Shown here in pieces: positions 8,290 to 23,504 of a stretch of DNA of 64,000 nt. The position numbers and the translations under genes were made by a program. Every line of letters begins with the position of its first letter. Position 1 is the first letter of the stretch. Location: assembly GCF_021653975.1 (NCBI RefSeq), contig NZ_JAJKFK010000006.1:415789-479788 (forward strand), in the 5' to 3' direction. The DNA is from Amycolatopsis sp. GM8 (GTDB lineage Bacteria > Actinomycetota > Actinomycetes > Mycobacteriales > Pseudonocardiaceae). The notes beneath the pieces were generated by a model. The model had not been told where the DNA came from. It saw only the letters and a list, made by a program, of their open reading frames with translations, and searched no databases.

Positions 8290-8297
8290 GGCCTGCC

Positions 8298-8386: not shown

Positions 8387-8431
8387 AAACTATAGATTCT
8401 CTTGCGTGTGCCGCGGCACGGCGGTTAAGCT
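8387..8431 (+). promoter_or_regulatory. Promoter with shared palindromic operator (copy 1) for the LLM-ACAD-ALDH operon
   Basis: The 12-mer AAACTATAGATT (8387-8398) is followed after 3 bp (CTC) by a -35 candidate TTGCGT (8402-8407), an 18-bp spacer and a -10 candidate TAAGCT (8426-8431). The same 12-mer type with the same 3-bp gap to the -35 occurs at 19439-19450 and 22616-22627. Its centre lies near -45 from the expected start point, a position more usual for an activator than a simple repressor. The predicted leader before the first gene is long, about 170 nt. Confidence 0.7.
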
Positions 8432-8610
8432 CCGTTGTGCAGGCGGCACTTTTTCTTGCGGCGACGCGATCCGTCGTCGTACTCGTTGACCTGCGCCCGT
8501 AATCCGTCAGGTCGTGATCGGTCTGCCCGCGCGTCGCACGTACCGCGAGGCAGCGATCCGCCGTGCGCCGAAATCCTGATTGTCGTGCGCCTACCTGGAA
8601 GAGGAACGCC

Positions 8611-9786
8611 GTGAAGGTTGGCTGCTATTTCAATTTCCAGAACTACATGGACTGGGATCGTTATCTCGCGCAGAAACCGGGGCCGCCGGAGATTACGGAC
8701 GCCCAGATCTACGATGAGGACCTGTATCTCGCCGACCTCGTCGAACCGCTCGGTTTCGACTCGTACTGGGCGATCGATCATTACACCTCCCCCTATGCCA
8801 TGACCGGCGGCGCCCTCAATCATCTGACCTATTTCGCCGGGCGGAGTTCGACACTGGATCTGGGCACCATGGTCACGGTGCTGCCCTGGCACGAGCCCAT
8901 TCACGTCGCGCACCAGATCAGCATGATCGACAACATCCTCAAGGACCGCCGGCTGACGCTGGGATTCGGCCGGGGAGCCGCGATCCGTGAGTTCGACGCC
9001 TTCGGGATCCCGATGGGGGAGTCCCGGATCCGGTACAACGAGGGCCTGGAGGTGATCAAGCGGTCCTTACAGGACGAATGGTTCTCGTTCGACGGCGAGA
9101 TCTTCAAGGTCCCCAAGACCACCGTGCGCCCGATGTACCGCAACCCGGAGCGGATCCTGGAGCGCATGCGAGTGGCCTGGACCAGTCCGGAGTCCTTGCC
9201 GCCCGCGGCACACGGCGGTCTGGGCATGTTGATGACCGGTCAGAAGAGTTTCGTCGAGTACGGCGCCGATGTGCGTAACTTCAACGCGATCCGCGCCGAG
9301 CACGGCTGGAAACCCAGCCAGCCCACGGTCATCGTGCGGGTCGCGTGCTTCGAGGACGAGCAGGAGGCGTGGGAGATCATGCGCCGGTACACCCTCGAAG
9401 GCCAGCGCAGCAGCCGCGTGCACTACGAGTTCGCCGATATCGAGCGCTTCCGCAACACCAAGGGCTACGAGCAGTACGCCAAGTTGCGCGAGCACGTGCG
9501 GACCGAGGAAGAAGCCCTGGAGAGCGCGGCAAAGCCGCAGGCATGGGGCACGCCGGATCAGGTTTTCGACCGTCTACTCGAGATTCAGCGCCTGACCAGC
9601 GCCGAGGAGTTCGTGCTGAGTTTCCGGATGACCTCGATGCCGGTGGCCGACGCGGAACGGTCCATGCGGCTCTTCGCCGATCAGGTCCTGCCGCGGCTGC
9701 ACGCGGCGAACGCCGCCTACAACCCGGAGGTCGGGTTGTCCGGTACCAATCCGCAGGCGATCGGTTCGGGCGTCACCCCCGCCTGA
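8611..9786 (+). CDS. LLM-class flavin-dependent oxidoreductase (bacterial luciferase-like, 391 aa)
   Basis: The protein is a luciferase-like monooxygenase or F420-dependent oxidoreductase: the barrel starts KVGCYFNFQ, LGFDSYWAIDHY is the first substrate/cofactor loop, LGTMVTVLPWHEP and RLTLGFGRGAAIREFDAFG are characteristic family segments. Enzymes of this class insert oxygen using FMNH2 from a partner reductase, or transfer hydride with F420. No reductase gene is adjacent. The GTG at 8611 follows GGAAGAGG; it is preferred over an ATG 16 codons upstream that lacks a ribosome site. It is the first gene of an operon with the acyl-CoA dehydrogenase and aldehyde dehydrogenase, and a second, distant family member lies at 15371-16297. 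Confidence 0.82.
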   Translation: MKVGCYFNFQNYMDWDRYLAQKPGPPEITDAQIYDEDLYLADLVEPLGFDSYWAIDHYTSPYAMTGGALNHLTYFAGRSSTLDLGTMVTVLPWHEPIHVAHQISMIDNILKDRRLTLGFGRGAAIREFDAFGIPMGESRIRYNEGLEVIKRSLQDEWFSFDGEIFKVPKTTVRPMYRNPERILERMRVAWTSPESLPPAAHGGLGMLMTGQKSFVEYGADVRNFNAIRAEHGWKPSQPTVIVRVACFEDEQEAWEIMRRYTLEGQRSSRVHYEFADIERFRNTKGYEQYAKLREHVRTEEEALESAAKPQAWGTPDQVFDRLLEIQRLTSAEEFVLSFRMTSMPVADAERSMRLFADQVLPRLHAANAAYNPEVGLSGTNPQAIGSGVTPA

Positions 9787-9822
9787 TTCCTTCATCACTC
9801 CACAAAGGATTCAAGCGAAACC

Positions 9823-12030
9823 ATGACAGCACAAGAGGACGAGAGGACCCTGCGCGCCGAGGTCCGGGCGTTTCTCGCCGAGGAACTCCCGCGGCCGCAG
9901 CGGTACGGAACCGGGCTCGTCGGCGGTCCCGGGTACATGGACTTCGCCCCGGAGTTCAGCCGGAAGCTGGCGGCCAAGGGCTGGGTCGGGATGGCGATCC
10001 CGCCGGAGTACGGCGGACAGGGACGGGGCAATCTCGACCGGTTCGTCGTCATCGAGGAGTTGCTGGCGGCAGGAGCCCCGCTGCTCGCGCATTGGGTGGC
10101 CGACCGCCAGACCGCGCCGATGCTGCTGGCGTTCGGCACCGAGGACCAGCGCCGGCGTTTCCTGCCGGTGATCGCCGCGGGCGAATGCTATATGGCGCTG
10201 GGTTTTTCGGAGTCCGAGGCGGGCTCCGACCTCGCGGCCGTCCGATGCCGGGCGACCAAAGTGGACGGTGGCTGGCAGTTGTCGGGCACCAAGATGTGGA
10301 CCAGCGGCGCGCACACCAACGACTGGATCGCGGTGCTGTGCCGGACCGCCGAGTTGGACGGGGACCGGCATCAGGGCCTGTCCCTGCTGATCGCGGACCT
10401 CCACGCGCCGGGGGTCACGATCCGGCCGATCTACTTCCCGGACGGCGGGCACCGCATCAACGAGGTCTTCCTCGACGACGTGTTCGTGCCGGACGATCTC
10501 GTGCTCGGCGAACCGGGTTCGGGCTGGGACCTGATGAATTCCGAGCTCTCCCACGAGCGGGCCGGACCCGAGCGGTTCCTTGCGGTGTGGCCGTTGTTCG
10601 AGGCCTACCTCTCGCAGAGCCGCAAGAACCTCGCCGGGAACGAATCGCGGATCGGCGGAATCGGCTCCCGGTTCTGGGCGCTGCGGCAGCTGGCCCTCGC
10701 GGTCGCTCGCGGAATCGAGCAGGAGCAAGTGAGCCCGTTGAGTGTGTCGATCCTGAAGGACCTCGGCACCACCTTCCAGCAGGAAACCGTCGCGGAACTC
10801 CAGGTGATCGTCGAGCAGGACCCGGATCCTGCTTCCGGCGACGTGTTCGACGCCCTCTTGGCGCGCGCCCTGGTGATGGGACCGTCCTGGACGATCACGG
10901 GCGGGACCACCGAAGTGCTCCGCTCCGTCGCGGCCCGCGGTTTGCGCTCGGGCAGCGGCCGGGTGGCGCCTGGCCACGGCTCGTTCGAGGAAACGGTCGA
11001 ACGCCTTTTCAGCGAACTCAGCGGCCCGGAGAATCGGGAGCAGGCCGAACAATCCGGCTGGGCGCCCGAGGCCTGGGATGCGGTTTCCGCCGCCGGGTTC
11101 CAATGGGTGGGGGTCTCCGAATCCGCCGGCGGTTCGGGGGGCGAGCTCGCGGACGCCGCTTCGCTCGTCCGCCTCGCGGGCCGGCACGCGGTCGGGCTTC
11201 CGTTGGCGGAGACCACGATGCTGGGCGGCTGGCTGCTCGACAAGGCGGGGCTGCGGGTTCCGGCGGGGCCGGTGACCCTCGCGCCGACGAGTTCGACCGA
11301 CGATCTGGGGATCGGCCCGGGAAACACGGTGACCGGGCGACTCGAACGGGTGCCGTGGGCCGCCCGTGCGGAGCTGGTGATCGGAACGGTGTCCACATCG
11401 GACGGTCCCGCCGTGGTCGTGCTGGATCCGCGGACCGCCACGATCCGCCCCGGCGGCAACGTCGCGGGCGAGCCCAGGGAAACGCTGGTGTTCGAGCAAG
11501 TCGCGCTGTCTGGTGACCAGATAGTGCTGGTCGATCCGGATGTGCTGGCGGAGCTCGAACTGCGCGGCGGCCTCTCCAGAGCGCTGCTGATCGCGGGTGC
11601 GCTGGAGGCGGTCTGCGACCTCACTGTCGCCTATGTGAACCAGCGCGAGCAGTTCGGTCGTGAACTCATCCGGTTCCAGGCCGTGTCACAGCGGCTGGTG
11701 CAACTGGCAGCGGAGGCGGAACTGACGTCGCTCGCCGCGGTCGCTGCCGCGAGACGGCTCGGGGAGGTGGGGACGGCCGCGGCCTTCGAGGTCGCCGCGG
11801 CCAAGACGACCGCCGCCCGCGCGGCATCGGTGGTCGCCGCGCACGCGCACCAGATTCACGCCGCGATGGGGATGACCCGGGAGTACCCGCTGCACCATTT
11901 CACGCGCCGATTGTGGTCCTGGCGGCAGGAATGGGGGACCGGGGAGCACTGGGCACGGCGGGCCGGCGAGATCATGACCGCGACCCCGGTCGATCGGCTC
12001 TACCCGTTGATCACCACGGGATCGATATGA
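9823..12030 (+). CDS. Fused two-domain acyl-CoA dehydrogenase (735 aa)
   Basis: Two complete acyl-CoA dehydrogenase modules are fused. The N-terminal module (about residues 1-375) has the flavin motif LGFSESEAGSDLA, WQLSGTKMWTSGA and the C-terminal GGTTEVLRSVAARG. The C-terminal module (about 385-735) has the weaker AAGFQWVGVSESAGGSGGEL start and the REQFGRELIRFQAVSQRLV and MGMTREYPLHHFTRRLWSWR helices typical of the family. Similar fused FadE proteins occur in mycobacteria, where one half can be the structural partner of a heterodimer-like active site. It likely introduces a double bond into an acyl-CoA made by the fused CoA-transferase at 20235-22553. AAAGGA lies before the ATG; the upstream gene ends 36 nt away. 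Confidence 0.85.
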   Translation: MTAQEDERTLRAEVRAFLAEELPRPQRYGTGLVGGPGYMDFAPEFSRKLAAKGWVGMAIPPEYGGQGRGNLDRFVVIEELLAAGAPLLAHWVADRQTAPMLLAFGTEDQRRRFLPVIAAGECYMALGFSESEAGSDLAAVRCRATKVDGGWQLSGTKMWTSGAHTNDWIAVLCRTAELDGDRHQGLSLLIADLHAPGVTIRPIYFPDGGHRINEVFLDDVFVPDDLVLGEPGSGWDLMNSELSHERAGPERFLAVWPLFEAYLSQSRKNLAGNESRIGGIGSRFWALRQLALAVARGIEQEQVSPLSVSILKDLGTTFQQETVAELQVIVEQDPDPASGDVFDALLARALVMGPSWTITGGTTEVLRSVAARGLRSGSGRVAPGHGSFEETVERLFSELSGPENREQAEQSGWAPEAWDAVSAAGFQWVGVSESAGGSGGELADAASLVRLAGRHAVGLPLAETTMLGGWLLDKAGLRVPAGPVTLAPTSSTDDLGIGPGNTVTGRLERVPWAARAELVIGTVSTSDGPAVVVLDPRTATIRPGGNVAGEPRETLVFEQVALSGDQIVLVDPDVLAELELRGGLSRALLIAGALEAVCDLTVAYVNQREQFGRELIRFQAVSQRLVQLAAEAELTSLAAVAAARRLGEVGTAAAFEVAAAKTTAARAASVVAAHAHQIHAAMGMTREYPLHHFTRRLWSWRQEWGTGEHWARRAGEIMTATPVDRLYPLITTGSI

Positions 12031-12046
12031 CGAGAGAGCGTGCTTC

Positions 12047-13429
12047 GTGAGCGAAATTCGATATCGGGTCCTGAATCCCGCGACGAACGAGCTGGTGCGT
12101 GAGTATCCGACGGCCACCGACGCCGAGATCGAGGACGTGCTGGCCAATGCCCAGGCCGCATTTCTGCGTTGGCGCAAGGGAAAGCTGGCCGATCGCTCGG
12201 CGTTGCTGGGACGGGTCGCCGAATCGTATCGGGAGCGGATCGACGCGCTCGCCGAGATCATCACCCGGGAGATGGGCAAGCCCACCCGGGAGGCGCGGGG
12301 CGAGATCAAGCTTGTCGCCTCGATCTTTCGTTATTACGCCGAGAATGCCGCCGACTTGCTGGCGGACACCCACCTGAGCCCTCGGATGGGCGGATCCGCA
12401 GTGGTGCGCAAGGAGCCGATAGGCGCACTTTTGGGGATCATGCCGTGGAACTACCCGTATTATCAGGTCGCTCGTTTCGTCGCGCCGAACCTGATGGCCG
12501 GCAACCCGGTGATCATCAAGCACGCGCCCCAATGCCCGGAGTCCGCGTTGGCGATGGCGGACATTCTCCGCGACGCCCGCGCGCCCGAAGGCTTGTACGG
12601 CACCGTTTTCGCCACCAACGACCAGGTTGCCGCGATGATCGCCGACCCGCGCGTCGCGGGTGTGTCGGTGACCGGCAGCGAGCGGGCGGGCGCCGCGATC
12701 GCGGAGATCGCGGGCCGGAACCTGAAGAAATGCGTGCTCGAACTCGGCGGGTCGGATCCCTTCATCGTGCTCGACGGGGTGGATCTGGATGCCACCGTCA
12801 AAGCCGCGGTCGCGGCACGGATGGGTAACGCCGGGCAGGCGTGCAATGCGGCGAAGCGGATTATCGTCGTCGGTGATCAGTACGAGCCGTTCGTCGACCG
12901 GTTCACCACCTCGATGAGTTCGCTTCGGCCAGGCGACCCCACCGATCCGGCCGCCGGATTCGGTCCGCTCGCGTCGGAAGCGGCTGCGGAGAGCCTGCTG
13001 GACCAGGTGCGGGATGCCGTCGCCAAGGGCGCGAAGGTCCGCACCGGCGGTGACCGGGTGGACCGGCCGGGTTCGTTCGTCGAGGCGACCGTGCTCACCG
13101 GCGTCACACCGGAGATGCGTGCCTATACCGAGGAACTGTTCGGGCCGGTCGCGGTGGTCTACCGGGCCGGCGACGTGGATGCCGCGGTCGAGCTGGCGAA
13201 CAGCTCGCCGTTCGGGCTCGGCGGCGTCGTCTTCGGCGACGAGGCGGAGGCCGAGGAGGTCGCGGACCGGCTCGACACCGGGATGGTGTGGATCAACAGT
13301 CCACAAGGGTCGGCCGCGGACCTCCCGTTCGGCGGGACCAAACGTTCCGGCATCGGCCGCGAACTCGGCGCGCTGGGGATCGACGAGTTCGTCAACAAGA
13401 AGCTGATCTACAGCCCGAAACCACGCTAG
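12047..13429 (+). CDS. NAD(P)-dependent aldehyde dehydrogenase, succinate-semialdehyde dehydrogenase-like (460 aa)
   Basis: This is a standard aldehyde dehydrogenase: MPWNYPYYQVARF for cofactor binding, general base E232 in LELGGSDPF, catalytic cysteine C266 in GNAGQACNAAKR, and TEELFGPVAVVYR towards the C-terminus. The GQACNAAKR and lack of long N-terminal extension put it with the short GabD/Sad-type succinate semialdehyde dehydrogenases (about 455-460 aa), but family members also oxidise other omega-oxo acids. The GTG is 17 nt after the acyl-CoA dehydrogenase stop. It is the last gene of the operon that starts at 8611, and a hairpin lies after it. Confidence 0.85.
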   Translation: MSEIRYRVLNPATNELVREYPTATDAEIEDVLANAQAAFLRWRKGKLADRSALLGRVAESYRERIDALAEIITREMGKPTREARGEIKLVASIFRYYAENAADLLADTHLSPRMGGSAVVRKEPIGALLGIMPWNYPYYQVARFVAPNLMAGNPVIIKHAPQCPESALAMADILRDARAPEGLYGTVFATNDQVAAMIADPRVAGVSVTGSERAGAAIAEIAGRNLKKCVLELGGSDPFIVLDGVDLDATVKAAVAARMGNAGQACNAAKRIIVVGDQYEPFVDRFTTSMSSLRPGDPTDPAAGFGPLASEAAAESLLDQVRDAVAKGAKVRTGGDRVDRPGSFVEATVLTGVTPEMRAYTEELFGPVAVVYRAGDVDAAVELANSSPFGLGGVVFGDEAEAEEVADRLDTGMVWINSPQGSAADLPFGGTKRSGIGRELGALGIDEFVNKKLIYSPKPR

Positions 13430-13459
13430 TTCCGGGAGCGCCGCGCCGCGTGAAGGTGA

Positions 13460-13537
13460 TTTGAAAGGGGCGGAGCCGCTTGCGGTGGGCCGTCAGCTCA
13501 TACCGCTACCCGCACCGCCACGCAAGCGACCTTCAAA
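13460..13537. terminator. Bidirectional hairpin between convergent genes
   Basis: Two nested arms pair across the gap: TTTGAAAGG (13460-13468) with CCTTCAAA (13530-13537), and CGCTTGCG (13477-13484) with CGCAAGCG (13521-13528). A short T run (ATTTTC) follows on the plus side. It lies between the stops of the aldehyde dehydrogenase and the convergent SDR. Confidence 0.65.
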
Positions 13538-13544
13538 ACATTTT

Positions 13545-14342
13545 CTAGCGGGCGGCGCTCGCGACCGCGCCTGGGTAGGTGGCGAGCGCCCCGCCGTCCA
13601 ACGGCACCAGGGCCGCCGTCATGTACCGGCTCGCGGGCGACGCGAGGAAGGCGACCAGGTCGGCGACATCGGTCACGGTCGCGGGGTCGGCGATCATCCG
13701 GTTGTTCCGCCGTGCTGCGTTCTTCACCGGGTCGTTGAAGGTCGCCGCCGTCTCCTCGCTGAAGATCGACCCGAGGACGATGACGTTCGACCGCACCCCG
13801 GACTCCGCGTAGTCCATCGCGATCTGGCGGCTGAGGCCTTCCAGCGCCGCTTTGGACGTGGCATAGGCGGGCGAGGACCGGTAGACCCGGTGCGCGCTGA
13901 TGCTCGACACGCTGACGATCGCACCGCCGCCCGCCGCGACGAGGTGCGGGATGCCGTACTTGGCAAGGTAGAACGGCCCGTAGACATTGACCTTCATGAT
14001 CCGGTCGAACACTTCGGCGGGTTCCTCGGCCACTGGGCGCTCCCCGGTGCCCCGCAGGATGTCGCTCGCCGCCGCGTTGTTCACGATGATGTCGAGCCGG
14101 CCGTACTCCGCGATGGTCGCCTCGACGGCACGGCGCACGGCCTCCTCCGAGGTCAGGTCGGTCGGCACGAACATCGCGCGGCCCCCGTTGCGGCGGGCCT
14201 CGCGGGCGATGGACTCACCGGACTCACTGCGGCCCAGCCCGACGACCGCCGCACCGTCCGCGGTGAGGCGCCGGACGAGTTCCGCGCCCATGCTCTTCGT
14301 CGCCCCGCTGACGATGGCGACCTTTCCGTCGAACGTCCCCAA
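13545..14342 (-). CDS. Short-chain dehydrogenase/reductase (265 aa)
   Basis: This is a classical SDR: the Rossmann motif VSGATKSMG at the N-terminus, NNAAA, a serine in SVSSISAHR, and the catalytic Tyr-Lys pair in YATSKAAL, followed by a C-terminal PLDGG. The first glycine motif has K-S-M instead of the usual small residues. It probably oxidises or reduces a hydroxy/keto intermediate of the unassigned pathway. It is the last gene of a leftward operon that starts at the cupin (19345); the gene upstream ends 24 nt away. Confidence 0.85.
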   Translation of the reverse strand: MGTFDGKVAIVSGATKSMGAELVRRLTADGAAVVGLGRSESGESIAREARRNGGRAMFVPTDLTSEEAVRRAVEATIAEYGRLDIIVNNAAASDILRGTGERPVAEEPAEVFDRIMKVNVYGPFYLAKYGIPHLVAAGGGAIVSVSSISAHRVYRSSPAYATSKAALEGLSRQIAMDYAESGVRSNVIVLGSIFSEETAATFNDPVKNAARRNNRMIADPATVTDVADLVAFLASPASRYMTAALVPLDGGALATYPGAVASAAR

Positions 14343-14366
14343 CGTTTGATCCTTCCGTATGGTCGT

Positions 14367-15365
14367 TCACGCCACGTCTACGAGGACCTTGCCGATAGCG
14401 CCCTGCTCGACGGCTTCGTGCGCGTCGTTGGTGCGGTGCAAAGGAAAGTGGTGCAGGGGAAGGCCGGCCTCAACGCCGACCGGGAGTATTCCGCCGGCCA
14501 CCGCGGCGGTCACCGCTTCGACGGCCGACGATTTCGCCTTGTCGTTGATGGTGAAGACCGACACGAACTGCCATCGCGCGTTGGCCGCCATCGCGGGCCC
14601 GATCTCCACCGGGACGGGCCCCGACACCCGGCCCGAGTACACGGCGACCGTCCCGCCCGGGGCGAGCACCTCCTGGTCGAGCGCGGCATTGGCGTGCGGC
14701 GCGACCTCGACGATGATGTCGACACCGTGCGGCGCGACGTCCCGGATCAGGTTGCCGGCGTCTTCCGTCGTGTAGTTGACGACAGTGTGTGCGCCGGCCG
14801 CCGACGCCAGCGCCGCCTTGTCGGGCGTGCTGACCGTCGTGATCACGGTCGCACCACTCCAGCGGCCCAGTTGGATCGCCGCGTGGCCGACGGCTCCCGC
14901 CCCGCCCGCGACCAGGATCGTCCGGCCCGCGAGCGCGCCGGGACTCAACAGCGCCGGTCCGTTTTCCGCGCAGGTCAGGCAGCGGTGTGCGGTGATCGCC
15001 GGGACGCCGAGGCAGGCACCGGCGGCCAAGGAGACGCCGTCCGGGATTTCGACGGCGTTCGCTTCCGGCACCGCCACGAATTCCTGGGCGGTGCCACCGC
15101 ATCGCTGGCGCGCGGTCTCCCACAACCAGACGCGCTGCCCGATCCGGCCGGGATCAACGCCTTCTCCCACCGCGTCGATCACCCCGCCACCGTCCTGATG
15201 CGGCACGACGGCTGCGGTTCCCGAGTACCTCTGCCGGTTCTTCCAGTCCGCGGGATTGACGCCGGAGACACCGACTCGCACCCGGACTTCGCCCGCCCGC
15301 GGCTCGGGCGCCGGGAGATCGACCTCGGTGAGGACACCGTCGCGCGTATAGACGATCGCTCGCAT
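14367..15365 (-). CDS. Zinc-independent alcohol dehydrogenase / NADPH:quinone reductase-like (MDR family, 332 aa)
   Basis: The fold is the medium-chain dehydrogenase/reductase type with an N-terminal GroES-like domain (GEVRVRVGVSGVNPADWKNR) and the Rossmann glycine motif AGGAGAVGHAAIQL. The zinc-ligand set of true alcohol dehydrogenases is absent, so a quinone or enone reductase role with NADPH is more likely. The ATG at 15365 was chosen because the MRAIVY start is the usual one for the family; the frame stays open upstream through the neighbouring gene. Only 5 nt separate it from the flavin enzyme upstream. Confidence 0.82.
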   Translation of the reverse strand: MRAIVYTRDGVLTEVDLPAPEPRAGEVRVRVGVSGVNPADWKNRQRYSGTAAVVPHQDGGGVIDAVGEGVDPGRIGQRVWLWETARQRCGGTAQEFVAVPEANAVEIPDGVSLAAGACLGVPAITAHRCLTCAENGPALLSPGALAGRTILVAGGAGAVGHAAIQLGRWSGATVITTVSTPDKAALASAAGAHTVVNYTTEDAGNLIRDVAPHGVDIIVEVAPHANAALDQEVLAPGGTVAVYSGRVSGPVPVEIGPAMAANARWQFVSVFTINDKAKSSAVEAVTAAVAGGILPVGVEAGLPLHHFPLHRTNDAHEAVEQGAIGKVLVDVA

Positions 15366-15370
15366 GCGCC

Positions 15371-16297
15371 TCAGATCTTCGCCAATGCGCGGACCTCGTC
15401 GAGGACTCGCAGCGTCTCGTCGGCTGTGGGAGGCGGCGCGGCATGGCTCGCCGCGGCCACGCGAAGGTAGTCCTCGGCGGAATCGTCGATATGGATCGGC
15501 GTACCCGAGTGGTTGTAGAGGGCGACCACCAGCCGCGACGCGCCCGCGGCTTCGTACGCGTCCTGAATGCGCGGCGTGGCGCCCCGGACGATGGCCGAGA
15601 TCTCGATTTCCGAGGGATCCCGCCCGATCTTCTCGCACTCCACGGCGATCTGGTCCCGGGTCGTCCCGACCTCCGCGGCGGAGATGTTGGACGCGATCCA
15701 GCCGTCGCCCCACTTGGCGACCCGGCGGGCGAGGGCTTCGCCGGGCCTGCCACCGAGGACGACCGGCGGATGTGGCTGCTGCACGGGCCGCGGGTCACAT
15801 CGCACGCTGGGAAAGCTCACCAGCTCACCCTCGTAGCTCGCGACTCCGTCCCGCCAAAGGCTTTTCATCGCCTCGACGGCTTCCCGCGTGTACCGGAACC
15901 GGGTGTCGAAGTCGGTGCCGAAGAGCTCGATCTCCTCTCGTGCCCATCCGGTGCCGACGCCGAAGATGACCCGACCGTGCGAGAAGTTGTCCAGCGTGCT
16001 CACGGATTTGGCCAGCAGGAGCGGATGGTGCTCGGGCACGATGCAGACGCCGAGGCCCAGCTTGATCCGGCTCGTCGCCGCGCCGATGTAGCTCAGCAGC
16101 ACGAAAGGGTCCGCCATCTGGCCGTAGACGTCCGGGACGGCGCCACCGGTCATCCGGTAGGGCGTCCGGAAATCGGTGGGGAGGATGGCGTGCTCGGGGA
16201 CCCAGAACGAGTCGAAGCCGCTGTCCTCCACAGCTTTCGCGATGGTCACCGGGTCGATCGTGTATCCCGTGACGTAGAACAGGACGCCAATCTTCAT
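15371..16297 (-). CDS. LLM-class F420/FMN-dependent oxidoreductase (308 aa)
   Basis: This is a second luciferase-like protein, of the shorter actinomycete subtype often using coenzyme F420. Typical segments are MKIGVLFYVTG at the start, GFDSFWVPEHAILP, LLAKSVSTLDNFSHGRVIFGVGTGW and the FDTRFRYTREAVEAMKSLW helix. The ATG at 16297 starts the recognisable barrel; 55 extra in-frame codons upstream belong to the previous gene's DNA. The start overlaps the stop of the SMP-30 gene by 4 nt (ATGA), so the two are coupled. Together with the enzyme at 8611-9786 this gives the pathway two separate flavin steps. Confidence 0.82.
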   Translation of the reverse strand: MKIGVLFYVTGYTIDPVTIAKAVEDSGFDSFWVPEHAILPTDFRTPYRMTGGAVPDVYGQMADPFVLLSYIGAATSRIKLGLGVCIVPEHHPLLLAKSVSTLDNFSHGRVIFGVGTGWAREEIELFGTDFDTRFRYTREAVEAMKSLWRDGVASYEGELVSFPSVRCDPRPVQQPHPPVVLGGRPGEALARRVAKWGDGWIASNISAAEVGTTRDQIAVECEKIGRDPSEIEISAIVRGATPRIQDAYEAAGASRLVVALYNHSGTPIHIDDSAEDYLRVAAASHAAPPPTADETLRVLDEVRALAKI

Positions 16298-17244
16298 ACC
16301 TCGCCACCTGATCCCGTTGTTGATGTGTCCGCGTGGCAGCCGGGAACCCGCACGCGGACCTTGTCGATTCTCGAATTGCCCGCCATCAGCCGCGCCAGGT
16401 CCCGTACCGGTGGGCCCGGCGCCGGGCGCGACCCGTCGTCGTGGAATTTGCGCCGTGCCCACTGCTGGGCGATCTCGCTGGTGCCGTTGCTGAGCAGGAA
16501 CAGTGTCCGCCCGTCGGCACCGCCGAGGCAGCAGGCCACGGCGCGCCGCCCGGGAATCTTGATGACGTCGGTGACCGCGCCGCCGTCCTCAATGCGCCGG
16601 AAAACCCCGTCGCCTGTAGACGATGTCCACACCGCACCCTCGGCGTCCGCGGAAATTCCGTCCGCCGTGAACGGGCTCAGCTCGGCGAAGACCCGGCGGT
16701 TGTGCAGCGACCCGTCCGGTCCCCGGTCGAACTTGGTGAGTCTGCGTGCCGGGAGTTCGGCGACGACGTAGCACCCGTCGGGCGTGAGGCACGGGCCGTT
16801 CGGGGCGACCATGTCGTCGGCCACCATGCGCGCGGATCCGTCCGGCTCGACCAGGATGACGGCGCCGGTACCGGGTACCGCCGACGCCGTGCGATCGCGC
16901 AGCCCGACGGCGCCCACATACGCCCGCCCCCGCGGGTCCACGACCATGTCGTTGACGACGCCGCGCGCGAAGCGGGACAGGTCGGCGTGGACCACCACCT
17001 GCCCGGGCGCGTCGAGCCGGAGCACATTGGGGTAGTCCAGGTTCGAGATCAGGAGCCGGCCATCGGGCAGGAAACCGAGCCCCACCGGCAGTTCCGTTCC
17101 CGGGAAACGCACGATCTCCTCGGCCGCGCCGTCCTCGGTGACGGCCAGCACCCGCTGGCCGAAGACATCCGAGACCCACAGCCTCCCTTCGTGCCAGCGT
17201 GGACCTTCGGCGAAACAGAGTCCATCCAAGACCAGTCGCGTCAC
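16294..17244 (-). CDS. SMP-30/gluconolactonase/LRE family beta-propeller lactonase (316 aa)
   Basis: SMP-30-type six-bladed propellers are metal-dependent lactonases. FAEGPRW gives the first metal-ligand glutamate (E13), NDMVVDPRGRAYVG the asparagine/aspartate blade, MVAPNGPCLTPDG the next asparagine and DGISADAEGAVW the catalytic aspartate. The likely role is hydrolysis of a lactone made by a Baeyer-Villiger-type flavin enzyme in the same operon, but that is inference. The GTG at 17244 overlaps the stop of the upstream gene by 4 nt (GTGA), and its stop overlaps the following flavin enzyme start. Confidence 0.83.
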   Translation of the reverse strand: MTRLVLDGLCFAEGPRWHEGRLWVSDVFGQRVLAVTEDGAAEEIVRFPGTELPVGLGFLPDGRLLISNLDYPNVLRLDAPGQVVVHADLSRFARGVVNDMVVDPRGRAYVGAVGLRDRTASAVPGTGAVILVEPDGSARMVADDMVAPNGPCLTPDGCYVVAELPARRLTKFDRGPDGSLHNRRVFAELSPFTADGISADAEGAVWTSSTGDGVFRRIEDGGAVTDVIKIPGRRAVACCLGGADGRTLFLLSNGTSEIAQQWARRKFHDDGSRPAPGPPVRDLARLMAGNSRIDKVRVRVPGCHADTSTTGSGGEV

Positions 17245-18569
17245 GCCGTGCCCACTTTCCCGCCCCGGGCCAGTGGCCGGAACAGGGAGAAGGCGCGTGG
17301 ATGGATGTTCGCCCCGATCTCGGGCGCGCCCCGCCAGTAGTAGGTGCACGGGGTCCGCAGCTCCTGGACGTAGGTCAGGTCCTCTTTCGCTTCCAGGTAC
17401 GGAAGCTGGTAGCCGATCGCGTCGAAGAAGCGGCCGCCACGGCTGATCTCCGGGTGTGCGGCGGCCATCGCGACCAGCTCGACGACGTTCCCGCCGATCT
17501 CACCGTCGCCCAGTCCGGCCCGGGCGTCCGCCGGGGAGACCGGCTCGGGAAACCGCCGGCCCCACACCGTGTACCAGGCGGAGTAAAGAATTTCGGGCAT
17601 CCGGCTCCGGTCGTCGACCGGGGCGTAATCCGAGGTACGCGCGACGAATCGGACCCCGGCAAGCGCGGCCTGGCGCGCCCACGGGATGCGGGTCTCGATG
17701 ACGAGCGGGATGTCGAACCGGCCGCGGTAGGCGGCGGGCTGGGGGAGAAGGCGCGGCAGCGAACGGAGATACTCCTCGGCGGACAACCCGAGTTCGGTGT
17801 GGTACCCGAACGTCACGTACAGCGCGGTCAGGCGCTGCCACTCACGATCGAGGTCCAGACCATCGGGCAGGCCGGCGTGCTCCGGCGTCGGACCGAGGGC
17901 GGTGCGTGGCGGCGGCGGATCGCTCAGCACGCGCCGGCCTCGCGCCGCCGTCGTCCGGGCGCCGTGGGTCGGTCCGTGGTCGTCCGCGCCGAGGTCGTAG
18001 CCGACCAGGAGGCTGCCTTCGACCGGATCGCGGTAGGCGGGGCCGCCGGGCGCCTCGGCGGACCCGTCGAACCGGGCGGAGGCGATCCGCCCGTCCACGC
18101 GCGAGTGGGACCGGATCCAGTAGCCGCGCTCGTCGAGCACGTGGCCGGTGCGGACGCGGCTGTCCTGGCTGGCGACGATGTACTGATTGAGGGTGAGCAA
18201 CACCCGGCCCTCGGCGGCGATCCGTGCCATCAGCTCGGCTTCGGTGGTGTCGCAGTACGGGCAGTCCAGGCCGGCTTCGTAGTCGAACCAGCCGTAGGGA
18301 TCGTCGACATTGGTCACGACGTTGTCCGCGCCCAGCGCGTAGCTGTGCATGCCGGGAAAGATCTCCGCCAGGTGGTGCCGCGCACGTTGTGTGGCGAGTT
18401 CCGCGGGCAGGTAGCCGACGCGGAATCCGTTGTCGCGCAACGATTCGAGCTCGGCCGCCGAGTACGGGCACGGCGAGACCTCGTAGCGCGCACCGATCCG
18501 GGCGCCCCGCTCGTCCCAGCTGGCCTGGTGCGCCTCGGTGAGCAGATCCGGGGTCAGGGGTTCGCTCAT
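17241..18569 (-). CDS. Unrecognised conserved-looking protein (442 aa)
   Basis: I do not recognise this family. The protein is soluble-looking, with no signal peptide or membrane segment, and has the codon bias of its neighbours. Visible features are an N-terminal CPYSAAELESLRDNGFR region, a PGMHSYA segment, VDDPYGWFDYEAGLDCPYCD with a CxxC-like pair near residues 110-115, the helix-like LTLNQYIVASQDSR with a following RTGHVLDERGYW, a charged proline-rich middle, and a C-terminal TPCTYYWRGAPEIG. Both ends overlap neighbours by 4 nt, so it is co-translated with the cupin and the lactonase, which argues for a role in the same pathway. It might be an enzyme of a new family or an accessory protein. 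Confidence 0.8.
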   Translation of the reverse strand: MSEPLTPDLLTEAHQASWDERGARIGARYEVSPCPYSAAELESLRDNGFRVGYLPAELATQRARHHLAEIFPGMHSYALGADNVVTNVDDPYGWFDYEAGLDCPYCDTTEAELMARIAAEGRVLLTLNQYIVASQDSRVRTGHVLDERGYWIRSHSRVDGRIASARFDGSAEAPGGPAYRDPVEGSLLVGYDLGADDHGPTHGARTTAARGRRVLSDPPPPRTALGPTPEHAGLPDGLDLDREWQRLTALYVTFGYHTELGLSAEEYLRSLPRLLPQPAAYRGRFDIPLVIETRIPWARQAALAGVRFVARTSDYAPVDDRSRMPEILYSAWYTVWGRRFPEPVSPADARAGLGDGEIGGNVVELVAMAAAHPEISRGGRFFDAIGYQLPYLEAKEDLTYVQELRTPCTYYWRGAPEIGANIHPRAFSLFRPLARGGKVGTA

Positions 18570-19345
18570 TGCTCGCCCTGCCGGGTCGTGTTCCACCGGT
18601 GCAGGCCGGGGAGCCTGGCCGCGAGGATCCGGGTTTCCCGGTGGGCGCGCAGGATGTGCCCCTGTCCGTGCTGGTCCTGGACGAGGCAGACGTCTCCGGG
18701 ACCGAAGCGGCGGACGGCGGAGTCACCGCCGACCTCCAGTTCCAGCGCGCCTGAGGTCACGCACACGAGGTTGATGTTCGTGTCGGTGTGCCAGGTACCG
18801 GCGTGACCTGGCGAGAACACGAGGAAGGACAGGCCGTTGAGCGCCTGCGTCGCGGGCGCGTCGGCGAACAGGCGGTCGAACCGGCGGAAGTGAGCGATGC
18901 CGTCCCGGACGAACATCTCCTCCAGCAGGGGTTCTCGCGGCCCGCCGGTGGGCTCGGTGGCGGGTGGGACGGTGCCGCCGGGGGCCCATGAATCGCTCAC
19001 ACGTATCCCGAGGAGGCGTGTCCCGGGCGGTGTGCTGATGCAGCAGAGCGCGTCCGGGCCGGTTCCGGTGAGGAGCACGTCTCCGGGGTGGAGCCGGGCT
19101 CGTGTGTCCGATGCTTCGAGGTCGAGCCCGCCTGCGACGACGAAGATGAGGAAGCGGGAATCGGCGGCGGGACGCGGTAGGTCGGCCGGGCGGGCGAACG
19201 GGAGAACCTCGATCGCCGCCTTCGAAAGTTCGCCGGCGCGGCGTGCGTCCTCGTCCGTGGCGGCCGGACCCGCGAACGGGAGGGGTAAGGCCTCCAGACG
19301 TATCGTCCCGCGACCGTCCACGACGGTTCGGACTGTTCTCATCAT
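18566..19345 (-). CDS. Cupin-domain protein (259 aa)
   Basis: Two cupin-like halves can be seen. The first has FLIFVVAGGLDLE and ARLHPGDVLLTGTG; the second has GTWHTDTNINLVCVTSGALELE followed by FGPGDVCLVQDQHGQGHILR, where HTDTN and the later histidine are candidate metal ligands. This is the layout of small bicupins that act as dioxygenases, isomerases or ligand sensors. It is the first gene of the leftward operon. Two adjacent ATGs (19345 and 19342) fit the GAAGG ribosome site; I list the first. The stop overlaps the start of the unrecognised protein (ATGA). Confidence 0.75.
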   Translation of the reverse strand: MMRTVRTVVDGRGTIRLEALPLPFAGPAATDEDARRAGELSKAAIEVLPFARPADLPRPAADSRFLIFVVAGGLDLEASDTRARLHPGDVLLTGTGPDALCCISTPPGTRLLGIRVSDSWAPGGTVPPATEPTGGPREPLLEEMFVRDGIAHFRRFDRLFADAPATQALNGLSFLVFSPGHAGTWHTDTNINLVCVTSGALELEVGGDSAVRRFGPGDVCLVQDQHGQGHILRAHRETRILAARLPGLHRWNTTRQGEQ

Positions 19346-19405
19346 GCCCGCCTTCACACTCGAGGACACCGGAATACGGGCTGATCGCCGGCGCCCGACG
19401 GGCCG

Positions 19406-19450
19406 AGTCTAAACGGTGCAAGGCGACCGGATCAAGAGAATCTGTAGATT
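19406..19450 (-). promoter_or_regulatory. Promoter with shared palindromic operator (copy 2) for the cupin operon
   Basis: Reading leftwards, the perfect palindrome AATCT-AC-AGATT (19450-19439) is followed after 3 bp (CTC) by -35 TTGATC (19435-19430), an 18-bp spacer and -10 TAGACT (19411-19406). This is the most symmetric of the three operator copies. On its right side, 77 bp away, the GntR regulator gene starts, so the site may also serve autoregulation. Confidence 0.75.
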
Positions 19451-19526
19451 TTATCGTGCCCGGCCGGTCCGCTCCACGGCACGCCGGTGTCCTCGCCGCG
19501 GCACGTCTTCATGCCATAATCGCCTC

Positions 19527-20225
19527 GTGTCCCAACCTGAATCGCGTGCCGACCGGGTCGCCGACGAGCTGCGTCGCGCGATCATCGCCCGGGTGTACAC
19601 CCCTGGTGAGCGCTTGGCGGCGCAGGCGCTCGCGCAGCGTTTCCAGGTGAGCGAGACGCCGCTGCGCGAGGCCTTCGCCCGGCTGGCCGGAGAGGGCTGG
19701 GTCACCTACCTCCCGCAGCGCGGGGTTCGCGTCGCCGACCTTTCGATGAGTGAACTCGCCGAGGTGTACGAGCTTCGCGAGCAACTCGAACCACTCGCGG
19801 TCCGAAAGGCGACCGAGAAGCGCAGTGACGCCGGTGTGGAGTCGGTCCGGCGCGCTTTCGAGGAAATGACCCGCGCGGCGGCCAGTGAGTCCAGGAAGCC
19901 CACCGACGACACGCATTCCGCGTACGAGGTCGCGCACGATCGCTTTCACCGCACCCTCGTGGCCGAATGCGACTCGGCGATCCTGTTGCGCTTCACCACG
20001 ATTCTCATGGACCAGTCGACCCGCTATCGCAGGCTGTCCCTGCCGGTGCGGAAACGCTCCATCTTGCAGGGCGAGCACCAGCGGATCCGGGACGCCGTGC
20101 TCGCCGGTGACCCGGAGGAGGCGGCCAAGGCGTCGCTGGACCACATGCACAACACGAAATTCGCGATCATCGACTGGCTCGCGACGCCGAGCGCGCAGGA
20201 ACTCGCTCCCGAGAACGACGGCTGA
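19527..20225 (+). CDS. GntR family transcriptional regulator, FadR/FCD subfamily (232 aa)
   Basis: The N-terminal winged helix-turn-helix (about residues 5-75) has the GntR pattern LRRAIIARVYTPGERL, then FQVSETPLREAFARLAGEG and a wing PQRGVRVAD. The all-helical FCD ligand domain (about 85-215) has FHRTLVAECDS, GEHQRIRDAVLAGDPEEA and a late H-H pair that can bind metal plus a carboxylate effector. The GTG start is 7 nt after a CATAAT -10 candidate (19515-19520), so the mRNA is probably leaderless. It lies in the middle of the cluster beside operator copy 2 and is the best candidate to bind the shared palindrome. It converges with the CoA-transferase gene, 9 nt away. Confidence 0.88.
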   Translation: MSQPESRADRVADELRRAIIARVYTPGERLAAQALAQRFQVSETPLREAFARLAGEGWVTYLPQRGVRVADLSMSELAEVYELREQLEPLAVRKATEKRSDAGVESVRRAFEEMTRAAASESRKPTDDTHSAYEVAHDRFHRTLVAECDSAILLRFTTILMDQSTRYRRLSLPVRKRSILQGEHQRIRDAVLAGDPEEAAKASLDHMHNTKFAIIDWLATPSAQELAPENDG

Positions 20226-20234
20226 CCGGCGGTC

Positions 20235-22553
20235 CTAGCGGTATGCGGTGAGGGTGCGGTACCGCATAGGGATGCCTTGGCGCACGACGTTGGCGTCGAG
20301 GAGCGCCGTGATCTCCTCCTCGCTGAAGCCCGCTTCGCGGAGGACGTCCGTGCTGTGTTCGCCGACTCCGGGTGGCGTGAGGACACGATCGTGCTGTGAG
20401 CGCGAAAAACGTGTGTAGCGTCCGGGCACGAAGATGTGCTTGCCATCCGCTGTGTCCATCGGATCGAAAACGTTCAGCGCCTTGTACTCCGGGTCCTCGA
20501 TCAGTTCCCGCTGGCGCCTCGCCGGCACAGCGGGTATCCCGGCCGCGTCGAGCTTGCTGATGGCCTCGTCGCGGGTGAGGGCAAGGAAGCTCGCCGTCAG
20601 TCGAATTCCGAGGTCGTCATTGCTCGCGTGATTCCCGTCGAGGATTCCCGCGCCGATGAGCGCGTCCTCTCTTGTCTGGATGCGGATCCAGCCGTCCTTC
20701 GTCTCGTAGAAACAATCGGCCGGGCCGGGGCCACGGAAGTCGCGACCACCGACACCGGCCGGAGTCCTGCCTTCCATCCGGATGATTTCCTCGCACTGGG
20801 AATAGGTCGACGTCCCGGCGAGGCTCAGCCACACGCGCTGCCCGCGTCCGCCCCGGAGGCGGTGGAAGAGAGCGAGCAGCGACCCGAGCACGGACAGCGC
20901 GGCCGATTCGACGTCGTTGATCCCGACGATCCCCATCACCGGCTCGCTGTCGCCGCCCTGCGCGGTCATCATTCCGCTCAATGCCTGCAGCAGTGGATCG
21001 AACGCGGGCTGCGCGGAAAACGCGTGACCCTCGCCGTAGCCGGTGATCGACAGGGAAATGATGTCGGGATTGACCTCGCGCAAATGCTCGTAGTCGATCT
21101 TCAACCGGGCGAGCACCCCGGCGCGATAGTTGTCGACCACGACATCCGCCGTCTCGGCGAGCCGCAGGAAGGCCGCGTGACCATCCGGCGACTTCAGATC
21201 GATGGCGATACAGCGCTGACCACGGATATAGGGCATGCCGCGGTGGCGGAAGTCGTCGCCCGCGGGAATCTCCACCTTGATCACATCGGCGCCGAGGTCG
21301 GCGAGCAGGGTGCCGGTGAACGGGCCGGCGAGGACCGTGCCGAGATCCAGCACGCGGACACCGGCGAGCGGGCCTGAGCCCGAAACGGCGTCGAGGCGCC
21401 GGGCAGGCTCCGGACGCGGGGCCCAATGCTCGACGGACTCGGTGTGCTCGCCCAATCTCGGCGCGGGGCGGCGAATGTCGGCCGGGGTCCCGGTCAGGTT
21501 CACCGGGCTCGCCGGCATCACGACTCGCCCTCGTTCGGGATCGTCGATCTCGAGGCGCGCGCCGATCGGGCCCAGCAACGGGGAGTCGAACCAGTCGTCG
21601 CGTTCGAGCAGCGGGCCGACCGGAACATCGGCTTTTCCCAGTGCGTCAAGCCATTCCGCGCTCGTGCGGGTCGCGAACCGATTGGCGAGGCGCCGGCGGA
21701 TCCAGGTCCGGTTGACCGGGAGCCGGAAGGTTTCCAGATCGTCGCCGACCCGCTCGTCGGCCAGGATGTCCGTGAGGCCAAGGACTTCGAGCGCCTGCCG
21801 CTGGAATTTCGAGGTGAGGGTGGCGAGGAGGATCCAGCGGCCGTCCGCGCATTGATAGCGCGTGTACATCGGGTTCAGTCCGCCCGGCCCGTAATTCGCG
21901 GGGACTTCGGGGACCGACGGGTCGATCAGATAGGCATAGGCCACCATCGTCGCGTGCAGCCCGCCCGCCGTGACGAGCTGGCCCTCGCCGGACGTGTGCC
22001 GCTCGATGAGGGCCGCTGTCGCCGCCGCGGCGGCCCACGCGCCCTGAAGATAAAGCACCCAGGGAAACGCGTTGTCCACCGGAGTGCCGTCGAATGAGCT
22101 TTGCCGGAAGCACATTCCGGACAGTGCCCAGACGAGTCCCGCCGATTCGCCGTCCCCGGCCCAGCGATGATCGCGGAGAAAGGCCGGAAGATGCAGGTGG
22201 ACCAAACCCGGGTTGCCGGCGCGCGCCCGCTCGGGCGCCCTGATCCGGGCGAACGGCCCTTCCGTCCCGGAGGTCACGAGAACATCCGCGCACCCGATGA
22301 ACTCTTCGAGACGGGCGCGATCCTCTGCGTCGGCCGGGTCGATCACCACGCTGCGCTTGTTGCGGTTCCACATGGCGAAGCCGGGCCTGCTCCGGTCCGG
22401 GTCGCCCGCGGGAGGCTCGATCTTGAGGACGTCCGCGCCGAAGTCGGCCAGGTGCATCGCCGCGATCGGGCCGGCGATGCCGGAAGTCAGGTCGAGGACG
22501 CGGATACCGTCGAGTGGCCGGGACTGTCGCGGGTTGCCGGCCGGGTCGCTCAT
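20235..22553 (-). CDS. Fused class III CoA-transferase (CaiB/BaiF type, two domains, 772 aa)
   Basis: Two family III CoA-transferase domains are fused (about residues 10-385 and 395-770). Each starts with the family pattern GIRVLDLTSGIAGPIAAMHL or GVRVLDLGTVLAGPFTGTLL and continues with GADVLKIE or GADVIKVE. The catalytic aspartate expected before LLQALSG is present in the second domain (QPAFDPLLQALSGMM) but not in the first (ESAGLVWALSGM), so only the C-terminal half should transfer CoA. The protein probably activates the pathway acid to its CoA ester for the fused acyl-CoA dehydrogenase. GGAGGGG precedes the ATG. It is divergent from the SDR at 22704. Confidence 0.87.
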   Translation of the reverse strand: MSDPAGNPRQSRPLDGIRVLDLTSGIAGPIAAMHLADFGADVLKIEPPAGDPDRSRPGFAMWNRNKRSVVIDPADAEDRARLEEFIGCADVLVTSGTEGPFARIRAPERARAGNPGLVHLHLPAFLRDHRWAGDGESAGLVWALSGMCFRQSSFDGTPVDNAFPWVLYLQGAWAAAAATAALIERHTSGEGQLVTAGGLHATMVAYAYLIDPSVPEVPANYGPGGLNPMYTRYQCADGRWILLATLTSKFQRQALEVLGLTDILADERVGDDLETFRLPVNRTWIRRRLANRFATRTSAEWLDALGKADVPVGPLLERDDWFDSPLLGPIGARLEIDDPERGRVVMPASPVNLTGTPADIRRPAPRLGEHTESVEHWAPRPEPARRLDAVSGSGPLAGVRVLDLGTVLAGPFTGTLLADLGADVIKVEIPAGDDFRHRGMPYIRGQRCIAIDLKSPDGHAAFLRLAETADVVVDNYRAGVLARLKIDYEHLREVNPDIISLSITGYGEGHAFSAQPAFDPLLQALSGMMTAQGGDSEPVMGIVGINDVESAALSVLGSLLALFHRLRGGRGQRVWLSLAGTSTYSQCEEIIRMEGRTPAGVGGRDFRGPGPADCFYETKDGWIRIQTREDALIGAGILDGNHASNDDLGIRLTASFLALTRDEAISKLDAAGIPAVPARRQRELIEDPEYKALNVFDPMDTADGKHIFVPGRYTRFSRSQHDRVLTPPGVGEHSTDVLREAGFSEEEITALLDANVVRQGIPMRYRTLTAYR

Positions 22554-22615
22554 GGGTCGTACCCCTCCCTCGGTTGCCGCTCGTGTGAGGCGACGCTAAC
22601 AGCGACCGTGGCGAA

Positions 22616-22659
22616 AGTCTATAGATTTTGTTGCGGGCTGGACCGAGGGCCGATACGCT
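22616..22659 (+). promoter_or_regulatory. Promoter with shared palindromic operator (copy 3) for the SDR gene
   Basis: AGTCTATAGATT (22616-22627) is followed after 3 bp (TTG) by -35 TTGCGG (22631-22636), a 17-bp spacer and -10 TACGCT (22654-22659). The expected start point is about 38 nt before the SDR GTG. The site also lies 63 bp from the divergent CoA-transferase start and may control both. Confidence 0.72.
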
Positions 22660-22703: not shown

Positions 22704-23504
22704 GTGACTCTCGACTATGGGCTCGCGGGCAAGCACGCAGTGGTTGTAGGTGCGGGACTGGGCATCGGACGGGACTGCGCGATGACGCTCGCGTCGGCGG
22801 GTGCCGCCGTGATGTGTGTGGACATCGACGAGCAGCGGGCGGCCGAGGTCGCGCGGGCTGTCACCGAGTCCGGCGGGAAGGCCGCGAGTTTCGTCGGCGA
22901 CGTGACGGTACGGGCCAATGTCGAGGCCTTGCGGGACGAAACCGATTCGGTCTTCGGTGGTGCGGACGTGGTGATCGACATCGTCGGGCTTGCCTTCAAT
23001 TTCGGCATCCTGGAGATCTCCGACGAGGACTGGGACCGTAACTTCCGGCTCAACCTGGTGCAGAACTTTCTGGTGACGCAGGTGTTCGCGAGGTACCTGC
23101 GTGAGCGGGAAATCGCGGGGTCCATTGTGCACATCGGCTCCGCCACGGGATTCCTGCCGCATATCGGAAGCGTGGCTTACAGCGCCGCGAAAGCGGGGCT
23201 CAACTCCCTTATCCAGTCCAGCGCGGTCGAGCTCGCGCCCTACTCGATCCGCGTGAACGGCGTGGCTCCCGGTGTGGTCGACACCCCTCGGCGGCGTGCG
23301 GAGTTCACGGATGCCAGCGTCACCGCGTCACTGAAGAACGTGCCGATGCGGCGATTCGCGACGACGCAGGAGATCGCCAATACGGCGGTGTTCCTCTCGT
23401 CGGGGCTCGCGAGCTACATCAGTGGCCAGATCTATCTCGTCGACGGCGGCGCGATGGCGGTCGGCCCGTTTCCCAGCGCGTTGCCGGAAACACGCGCGGT
23501 GTGA
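22704..23504 (+). CDS. Short-chain dehydrogenase/reductase (266 aa)
   Basis: This is a classical SDR with VVVGAGLGIGRDCAM as the nucleotide motif, an aspartate in CVDIDEQ that favours NAD(H), HIGSATG carrying the active-site serine, and YSAAKAGL with the catalytic Tyr-Lys pair. The C-terminal YLVDGGAM is typical. It is similar to 3-hydroxyacyl-CoA or cyclic alcohol dehydrogenases. The GTG at 22704 has GGAGG 9 nt upstream; an open frame continues far upstream through the divergent gene without homology. It ends directly against the stop of the degraded MFS gene on the other strand. Confidence 0.85.
   Translation: MTLDYGLAGKHAVVVGAGLGIGRDCAMTLASAGAAVMCVDIDEQRAAEVARAVTESGGKAASFVGDVTVRANVEALRDETDSVFGGADVVIDIVGLAFNFGILEISDEDWDRNFRLNLVQNFLVTQVFARYLREREIAGSIVHIGSATGFLPHIGSVAYSAAKAGLNSLIQSSAVELAPYSIRVNGVAPGVVDTPRRRAEFTDASVTASLKNVPMRRFATTQEIANTAVFLSSGLASYISGQIYLVDGGAMAVGPFPSALPETRAV

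What the first reader, a model, noticed from the sequence alone, without database searches (positions are those of the whole stretch)
8387..22659. Three promoters share a palindrome at an identical 3-bp distance from the -35 box
AAACTATAGATT (8387-8398), AATCTGTAGATT (19439-19450, reading leftwards) and AGTCTATAGATT (22616-22627) each lie exactly 3 bp before a -35 candidate (TTGCGT, TTGATC, TTGCGG), followed by 17-18 bp and a -10 (TAAGCT, TAGACT, TACGCT). Copy 1 and copy 2 even share the run AGATTCTCTTG. The three promoters drive the three units of the unassigned catabolic cluster, and the GntR gene sits beside the most perfect copy. The centre near -45 suggests activation rather than plain repression.
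Basis: partly seen in the sequence, partly recalled or inferred. Interest (0 to 1): 0.85.

Follow-up and report, generated by a model that had tools for sequence, protein, structure and literature searches.

The report
Local GntR operator regulon, two positions

Summary
In detail: three 12-bp palindromes, each 3 bp before a TTG (-35) box, then 17-18 bp and TAnnnT. They are part of a larger set. In the 8.16-Mb genome all six places with at most one mismatch, and two of the six with two, lie in 56 kb of one contig: three sites in the window, five 19-33 kb before it. GntR1 (19527-20225) is the probable binder: its four closest homologues found in 390 family genomes each have one perfect AATCTATAGATT in the genome as held, 0.2-5.8 kb from gntR. 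Activation there is possible (FadR is a precedent) but unproven. Promoters, binding and sign are predictions.

The parts
8387..8398 (+). operator copy 1 (class I), AAACTATAGATT
   Evidence: centre -45.5 of TTGCGT-N18-TAAGCT
8402..8431 (+). predicted promoter of the LLM/acyl-CoA dehydrogenase/aldehyde dehydrogenase unit (TTGCGT-N18-TAAGCT)
   Evidence: top-scoring candidate; leader about 173 nt to GTG 8611
8611..13429 (+). luciferase-like oxidoreductase, fused acyl-CoA dehydrogenase, aldehyde dehydrogenase (presumed unit of copy 1)
13545..19345 (-). presumed unit of copy 2: cupin, unknown 451 aa, SMP-30/gluconolactonase, LLM, zinc-binding dehydrogenase, SDR
19439..19450 (-). operator copy 2 (class I), AATCTACAGATT on the minus strand
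   Evidence: centre -45.5 of TTGATC-N18-TAGACT
19406..19435 (-). predicted promoter of the cupin unit (TTGATC-N18-TAGACT)
   Evidence: top-scoring candidate
19527..20225 (+). GntR1: GntR winged helix + FCD domain regulator, the proposed binder
   Evidence: PF00392, PF07729; homologues carry the same operator
20235..22553 (-). double-domain class III CoA-transferase, divergent from the SDR
   Evidence: predicted promoter TAGACT-N17-TAGCGT whose -35 is the operator's half (centre -35.5)
22616..22627 (+). operator copy 3, AGTCTATAGATT; class I for the SDR (centre -44.5), over -35 for the CoA-transferase (centre -35.5)
22631..22659 (+). predicted promoter of the SDR gene (TTGCGG-N17-TACGCT)
   Evidence: top-scoring candidate
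22593..22621 (-). predicted promoter of the CoA-transferase (TAGACT-N17-TAGCGT), -35 inside the operator
   Evidence: top-scoring candidate
22704..23504 (+). SDR family dehydrogenase (presumed target of copy 3)

Best explanation
The palindrome is the operator (16 bp, AA-AATCTATAGATT-TT) of GntR1, the FCD-type GntR regulator encoded at 19527-20225. GntR1 governs a compact regulon of eight operators over 56 kb (C19:382776-438415). The presumed targets are a branched-chain-type ABC importer, a dienelactone hydrolase, an aldehyde dehydrogenase/SDR/LLM unit, two double CoA-transferases, a ChsH2-like OB-fold/thiolase/acyl-CoA dehydrogenase unit, and the three units in the window. At class II promoters the dimer sits on the -10 box, and at three more promoters it covers -10, the start or -35, so it blocks RNA polymerase; a pathway acid or CoA ester bound by the FCD domain would release it. 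There it more likely hinders -35 recognition too; activation by contact with sigma region 4 is the rival. Shown by sequence: sites, clustering, linkage to GntR1 homologues, the two registers. Inferred: binding, promoters, sign of regulation, ligand. (The dual-regulator rival shares the regulon and differs only at class I, so the two confidences overlap.)
For: Clustering: 6 of 6 places with up to 1 mismatch, and 8 of 12 with up to 2, lie in 56 kb of 8.16 Mb. Linkage: the four best GntR1 homologues (44-51% identity) in 390 family genomes each have one perfect site in the genome as held, 0.2-5.8 kb from gntR. More distant homologues G563 and G546 have variants near their gntR. Registers: only TTG offsets +15 and -17 stand out, 4 each of 24 oriented sequences; no shuffle of 3000 had two such offsets. 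Mean best promoter score near the 12 sites is 13.65, against 9.36 (sd 0.60) in 60 shuffled sets. Repressor layout: six of nine assigned promoters in G000 have the operator centre between -35.5 and +4.5; G340 and G297, upstream of the same gene, have TTGnnn-N17-TAGATT. Symmetric information ends 2 bp outside the 12-mer, so the class I TTG is not part of the operator. Specificity: the residue aligned with Arg45 of Atu1419/FadR is Glu/Ala/Pro in 10 of 29 homologues; 7 of these 10 have a site with up to 2 mismatches within 700 bp of gntR, 0 of the 19 others do (grouping and limits chosen after seeing the data).
Against: No binding or expression data. GntR1's own promoter, the tenth examined, is not convincingly predicted; the site ends 76 bp before its start codon. 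The -35 for the aldehyde dehydrogenase is weak (TAGCGG). The leader before the LLM gene would be 173 nt. In G386 the class I promoter points into the 3' end of gntR, with no clear target gene; in G086 the MFS gene starts about 600 bp downstream. G340 and G297 share an orthologous promoter and copies 1 and 2 may be duplicates, so the register counts are not independent. Five homologues at E <= 1e-40 (G881, G628, G779, G529, G924) showed no site with up to 2 mismatches in the stretches read; of the 17 lower-identity loci (about 3.6 kb each, L007 and L014-L029) only two, near-copies L015 and L020, have one. A second GntR-like gene lies at C19:414204-414827, though with a different repeat beside it.
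Confidence: 0.74

Rival explanations
1. GntR1 is a dual regulator: repressor at class II sites, true activator at the -45 class I sites through contact with sigma region 4 or alpha-CTD, so one ligand moves the two sets of promoters in opposite directions or hands over between steps.
For: The class I register is exact in 3 G000 sites and G086, near-exact in G386. The operator core stops 1 bp short of -35, so simple occlusion is less obvious there. FadR does this (PMC9329746, passages), and a VanR-like GntR activator is described in Mycobacterium smegmatis (PMC4609117, abstract and passages).
Against: Both classes drive what look like parts of one catabolic route, for which opposite control makes little sense. 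Copy 3 also covers -35 of the divergent CoA-transferase. GntR regulators of catabolism are mostly repressors (general knowledge, not tested).
Confidence: 0.28
2. Another regulator of the neighbourhood (the TetR-like gene at C19:382164-382784, the TetR- and IclR-like genes near 401 kb, PucR-type proteins, or the second GntR-like gene at C19:414204-414827) binds the palindrome.
For: Several regulator genes lie in the same 70 kb (TetR and IclR named by eye).
Against: In G386, G086, G340 and G297 the only perfect site of the genome as held is near a GntR1 homologue. The second GntR-like gene has a different exact 26-bp repeat at its 5' end, shared with the BKACE gene.
Confidence: 0.06
3. Class I sites are not regulatory for the downstream promoter at all: the shared 3-bp gap is inherited from one ancestral promoter copied within the cluster.
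For: Copies 1 and 2 and G086 share AGATTCTCTTG.
Against: Copy 3 has a different linker (TTG) with the same gap; sequence downstream of the -35 differs among them; the gap is kept in G086, another genus.
Confidence: 0.08
4. Chance: an A+T-rich palindrome in a 68% G+C region happening near TTG boxes.
For: Within the 64-kb window alone a search with up to 3 mismatches is not significant (12 matches against 8.3 expected); with up to 2 mismatches the genome total (12) is not far above the backward-read control (7).
Against: Genome-wide clustering, homologue linkage and register statistics.
Confidence: 0.01

Closest known systems
Atu1419 of Agrobacterium fabrum (VanR-type FCD GntR; PMC7797058, passages; PDB 6z74 with 6za3 and others)
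   Same: GntR winged helix + FCD; short 10-bp palindrome; a palindrome overlaps the -10 box of its target promoters; represses a hydroxycinnamic acid catabolic cluster
   Different: Its operator ATGTATACAT has G3/C8 read by Arg45, and changing G3 to A (with C8 to T) abolishes binding. Here the 10-mer is ATCTATAGAT (G3 to C, C8 to G) and the aligned residue is Glu43 (Ala or Pro in the four closest homologues).
FadR of Escherichia coli (PMC9329746, passages; PMC4494728, passages and two sections)
   Same: GntR family; one operator sequence used at core positions (repression) and upstream of -35 (activation)
   Different: FadR activates biosynthesis and represses breakdown; here both classes serve breakdown genes and the sign at class I is unknown. 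FadR's operator belongs to the TKGT/ACMA type with 3 nt between GT and AC.
CsiR (closest NCBIfam model NF008576, 101.9 bits against cut-off 218; Pseudomonas putida CsiR in PMC6667623, passages)
   Same: GntR repressor of a catabolic operon; one protected region holds -10 and -35; released by pathway acids (glutarate, L-2-hydroxyglutarate)
   Different: Far below the family cut-off; different targets. Its operator sequence was not seen in the passages, so not compared.

Membership tests
GntR family, FCD (FadR/VanR) subfamily | N-terminal GntR winged helix | tested here: met
   PF00392, 65.1 bits, cut-off 27
GntR family, FCD (FadR/VanR) subfamily | C-terminal FCD domain | tested here: met
   PF07729, 79.4 bits, cut-off 24.3
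GntR family, FCD (FadR/VanR) subfamily | Operator fits NyGT-Nx-ACNy / TKGT..ACMA (PMC4494728) | tested here: not met
   Operator is ATCT-AT-AGAT: CT/AG instead of GT/AC, 2-nt spacing. The paper lists accepted exceptions (NanR, BioR), so this marks a variant, not a non-member. That GntR1 binds it is inferred.
GntR family, FCD (FadR/VanR) subfamily | Recognition-helix Arg (FadR/Atu1419 Arg45) reading the G of GT | tested here: not met
   Aligned residue is Glu43 (profile alignment with 6z74); Ala or Pro in the four closest homologues
Dual FadR-like regulator | Same operator over core promoter and upstream of -35 | tested here: met
   Predicted positions only
Dual FadR-like regulator | Activation from the upstream position | not testable with these tools
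   Needs expression data
CsiR | NCBIfam equivalog score above 218 bits | tested here: not met
   101.9 bits

The most novel reading that the evidence does not exclude
A GntR lineage that lost the family's recognition arginine and switched its operator from GT/AC to CT/AG. It uses one operator in two fixed registers on sigma-70-type promoters inside a single catabolic regulon: the operator's half as the -10 box (blocked) and the operator just upstream of -35 (activated). One ligand-responsive protein would thereby both shut and drive parts of one pathway.
Probability: 0.25. Interest if true: 0.65.

Novelty: new variant of a known kind. Interest (0 to 1): 0.46.

Why it matters
It turns an unassigned 56-kb catabolic block into one proposed regulon with a named binder, eight sites and defined promoter geometry, all open to direct test. 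It offers a natural example of a GntR specificity change, where loss of the conserved Arg goes with loss of the G it reads. It also offers a within-regulon comparison of repressor-position and -45-position sites for the same protein, useful for the question of when a GntR repressor becomes an activator.

Tried and rejected
The single-protein scan of genome contigs found one distant locus only (28%); plasmids gave 53 records, all below 60% identity, not followed. Class I core with linker (WCTATAGATTYTNTTG, no mismatch) in 19 genomes of the genus, G000 included: only G000 matched. Paper search for ATCTATAGAT: 22 papers hold it, the 15 listed are unrelated by title. TCTATAGA with GntR: one paper, on Staphylococcus sulfide stress, seen in the listing only. 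I know of no report of this operator; only these two searches back that. Assigning copies 1-3 to class II (palindrome as -10) was tried and rejected: no TTG 17 bp upstream. In one search I looked at offset -16 by a counting slip (0 found there); the correct class II offset is -17, used. In one search, with 13 sites and 2000 shuffles, 3.75% of shuffles reached 4 at some offset. The promoter matrix uses frequencies recalled approximately, not fitted. Rows dropped: G563 and G546 are left out of the 12-site statistic because their sites carry 1-2 mismatches; with them (15 sites) the counts are 5 at -17 and 4 at +15, and 1 of 3000 shuffles reached both values.
Full report
What was checked. Within the window alone a search with up to 3 mismatches is not significant (12 matches against 8.3 expected), so the case rests on the genome. 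There the motif with up to 1 mismatch occurs at six places in 8,157,730 bases, all on contig C19 between 382776 and 438415. With up to 2 mismatches there are 12 places; 8 are in that stretch and 4 are elsewhere, against 7 for the backward-read control. The window begins at C19:415789, so five of the eight sites lie before it, at C19:382776, 388711, 388765, 396851 and 396917. In the 110 kb read, the core CTATAG occurs six times, only at six of these eight sites.

The regulon. Genes next to the sites, by Pfam: a branched-chain-type ABC importer (site 382776); a dienelactone hydrolase and, divergently, an aldehyde dehydrogenase followed by SDR and LLM genes (388711, 388765); a double class III CoA-transferase and, divergently, a ChsH2-like OB-fold protein with thiolase and acyl-CoA dehydrogenase (396851, 396917); LLM, fused acyl-CoA dehydrogenase and aldehyde dehydrogenase (window 8387); a cupin-led unit and gntR1 (19439); a second double CoA-transferase and an SDR (22616). 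Between sites 396917 and 424175 lies what looks by eye like a ring-hydroxylating dioxygenase module with its own regulators and no copy of the motif. The substrate is not identified.

Who binds. Among 390 genomes of the family, 21 (G000 included) have a GntR1 match at E <= 1e-25. The four closest apart from G000 are G386 (51%), G086 (44%), G340 (45%) and G297 (44%). Each of these four genomes, as held, has exactly one perfect AATCTATAGATT, and it lies 165 bp, 394 bp, 5.7 kb and 5.8 kb from gntR; the only other match with up to 1 mismatch is one in G297. In broader profile searches at E <= 1e-40 (396 phylum genomes, 6 with a match, G000 included; 397 order genomes, 4 with a match, G000 and G086 included), G563 has a 1-mismatch site about 40 bp before gntR and G546 has two 2-mismatch sites within about 2.1 kb of it. 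G881, G628, G779, G529 and G924 have none with up to 2 mismatches in the stretches read. Of the 17 remaining, lower-identity loci (about 3.6 kb each) two have a site with up to 2 mismatches, L015 and L020; the 17.7- and 20-kb stretches of G014 and G131 have none. This ties the operator to GntR1 and its nearer kin rather than to the other regulators of the neighbourhood. The second GntR-like gene (tblastn match C19:414204-414827, 28%) has a different, exact 26-bp repeat at its 5' end, shared with the 5' end of the BKACE gene.

A shifted specificity. The family consensus has GT and AC boxes (PMC4494728, passages and two sections). In Atu1419 the 10-mer ATGTATACAT is read at G3 by Arg45, and changing G3 and its partner abolishes binding (PMC7797058, passages). 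Here the 10-mer is ATCTATAGAT. The residue aligned with Arg45 is Glu43 in GntR1 and Ala or Pro in the four close homologues. Across 29 homologues, 10 have Glu, Ala or Pro there; 7 of these 10 have a site with up to 2 mismatches within 700 bp of gntR, against 0 of 19 with any other residue. G340 and G297 count as misses in that test because their perfect sites are farther away; the third miss is L050. The grouping and limits were chosen after seeing the data, the loci are related, and the aligned residue of L054, a fragment, is unsure, so this is an association, not a proof.

Two registers. Counting TTG at every offset in both orientations around 12 sites, only +15 and -17 reach 4; no other offset exceeds 2. 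At neither offset did any of 3000 dinucleotide shuffles reach 4; 93 reached 4 at some offset and none at two. Offset -17 places TTG 17 bp before TAGATT/TAGACT, the second half of the palindrome, as -10: sites 382776 and 396917, G340 and G297 (G546 also, in the 15-site set). G340 and G297 share one orthologous promoter. The best promoter near the 12 sites scores 13.65 on average, against 9.36 (sd 0.60) in 60 shuffled sets. Symmetric sequence information ends 2 bp outside the 12-mer, so the class I TTG is a separate element.

Where the operator sits. Ten promoters of G000 were examined; top-scoring candidate for each gene, operator centre relative to the start: ABC importer -12.5; dienelactone hydrolase -10.5; aldehyde dehydrogenase -12.5; first CoA-transferase +4.5; OB-fold/thiolase unit -12.5 (leaderless); second CoA-transferase -35.5; LLM unit -45.5; cupin unit -45.5; SDR -44.5. 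The tenth, gntR1 itself, has no convincing promoter. Six of the nine assigned are thus at repressor positions and three at -45.

Mechanism. Most likely GntR1 is a ligand-released repressor of the whole block, blocking -10, start or -35 at six promoters and hindering -35 recognition at three. It is not excluded: FadR represses from core sites and activates from upstream of -35 (PMC9329746, passages). I put repression at both classes ahead because the two classes seem to serve one route. Binding, starts, sign and ligand are all untested.

Limits. Promoters are consensus predictions with recalled weights. Close homologues are few. In G386 the class I promoter faces the end of gntR with no evident target; in G086 the next gene starts about 600 bp away. 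No structure model was obtained (last asked).

Noticed in passing
window 7183-7205 and C19:414031-414053 (1.76 kb before the window): An exact 23-bp repeat (26 bp with its flanks), AAGATACGGTACCTCATATATCG, ahead of the BKACE start at 7275 and at the 5' end of a second GntR-like gene's longest frame (C19:414027-414920; the true start is probably further on): perhaps the operator of that second GntR.
   Followed up: partly
window 8087-8359: Two tandem arrays of 21-bp units (9.3 and 2.9 copies) in the intergenic stretch between the BKACE gene and copy 1; function unknown.
   Followed up: no
window 7275-8084 and G386 (L031:1208-1945): The BKACE protein is 82.5% identical to one encoded beside the GntR1 homologue of G386, although in the window its gene carries the other repeat.
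   Followed up: no
window 17241-18596: 451-aa protein of the copy-2 unit has no Pfam or NCBIfam match at E <= 0.001.
   Followed up: no
C19:400830-413997 (before the window): What looks by eye like an aromatic ring-hydroxylation/ring-cleavage module with its own TetR- and IclR-like genes sits inside the GntR1 regulon and has no copy of the operator.
   Followed up: no
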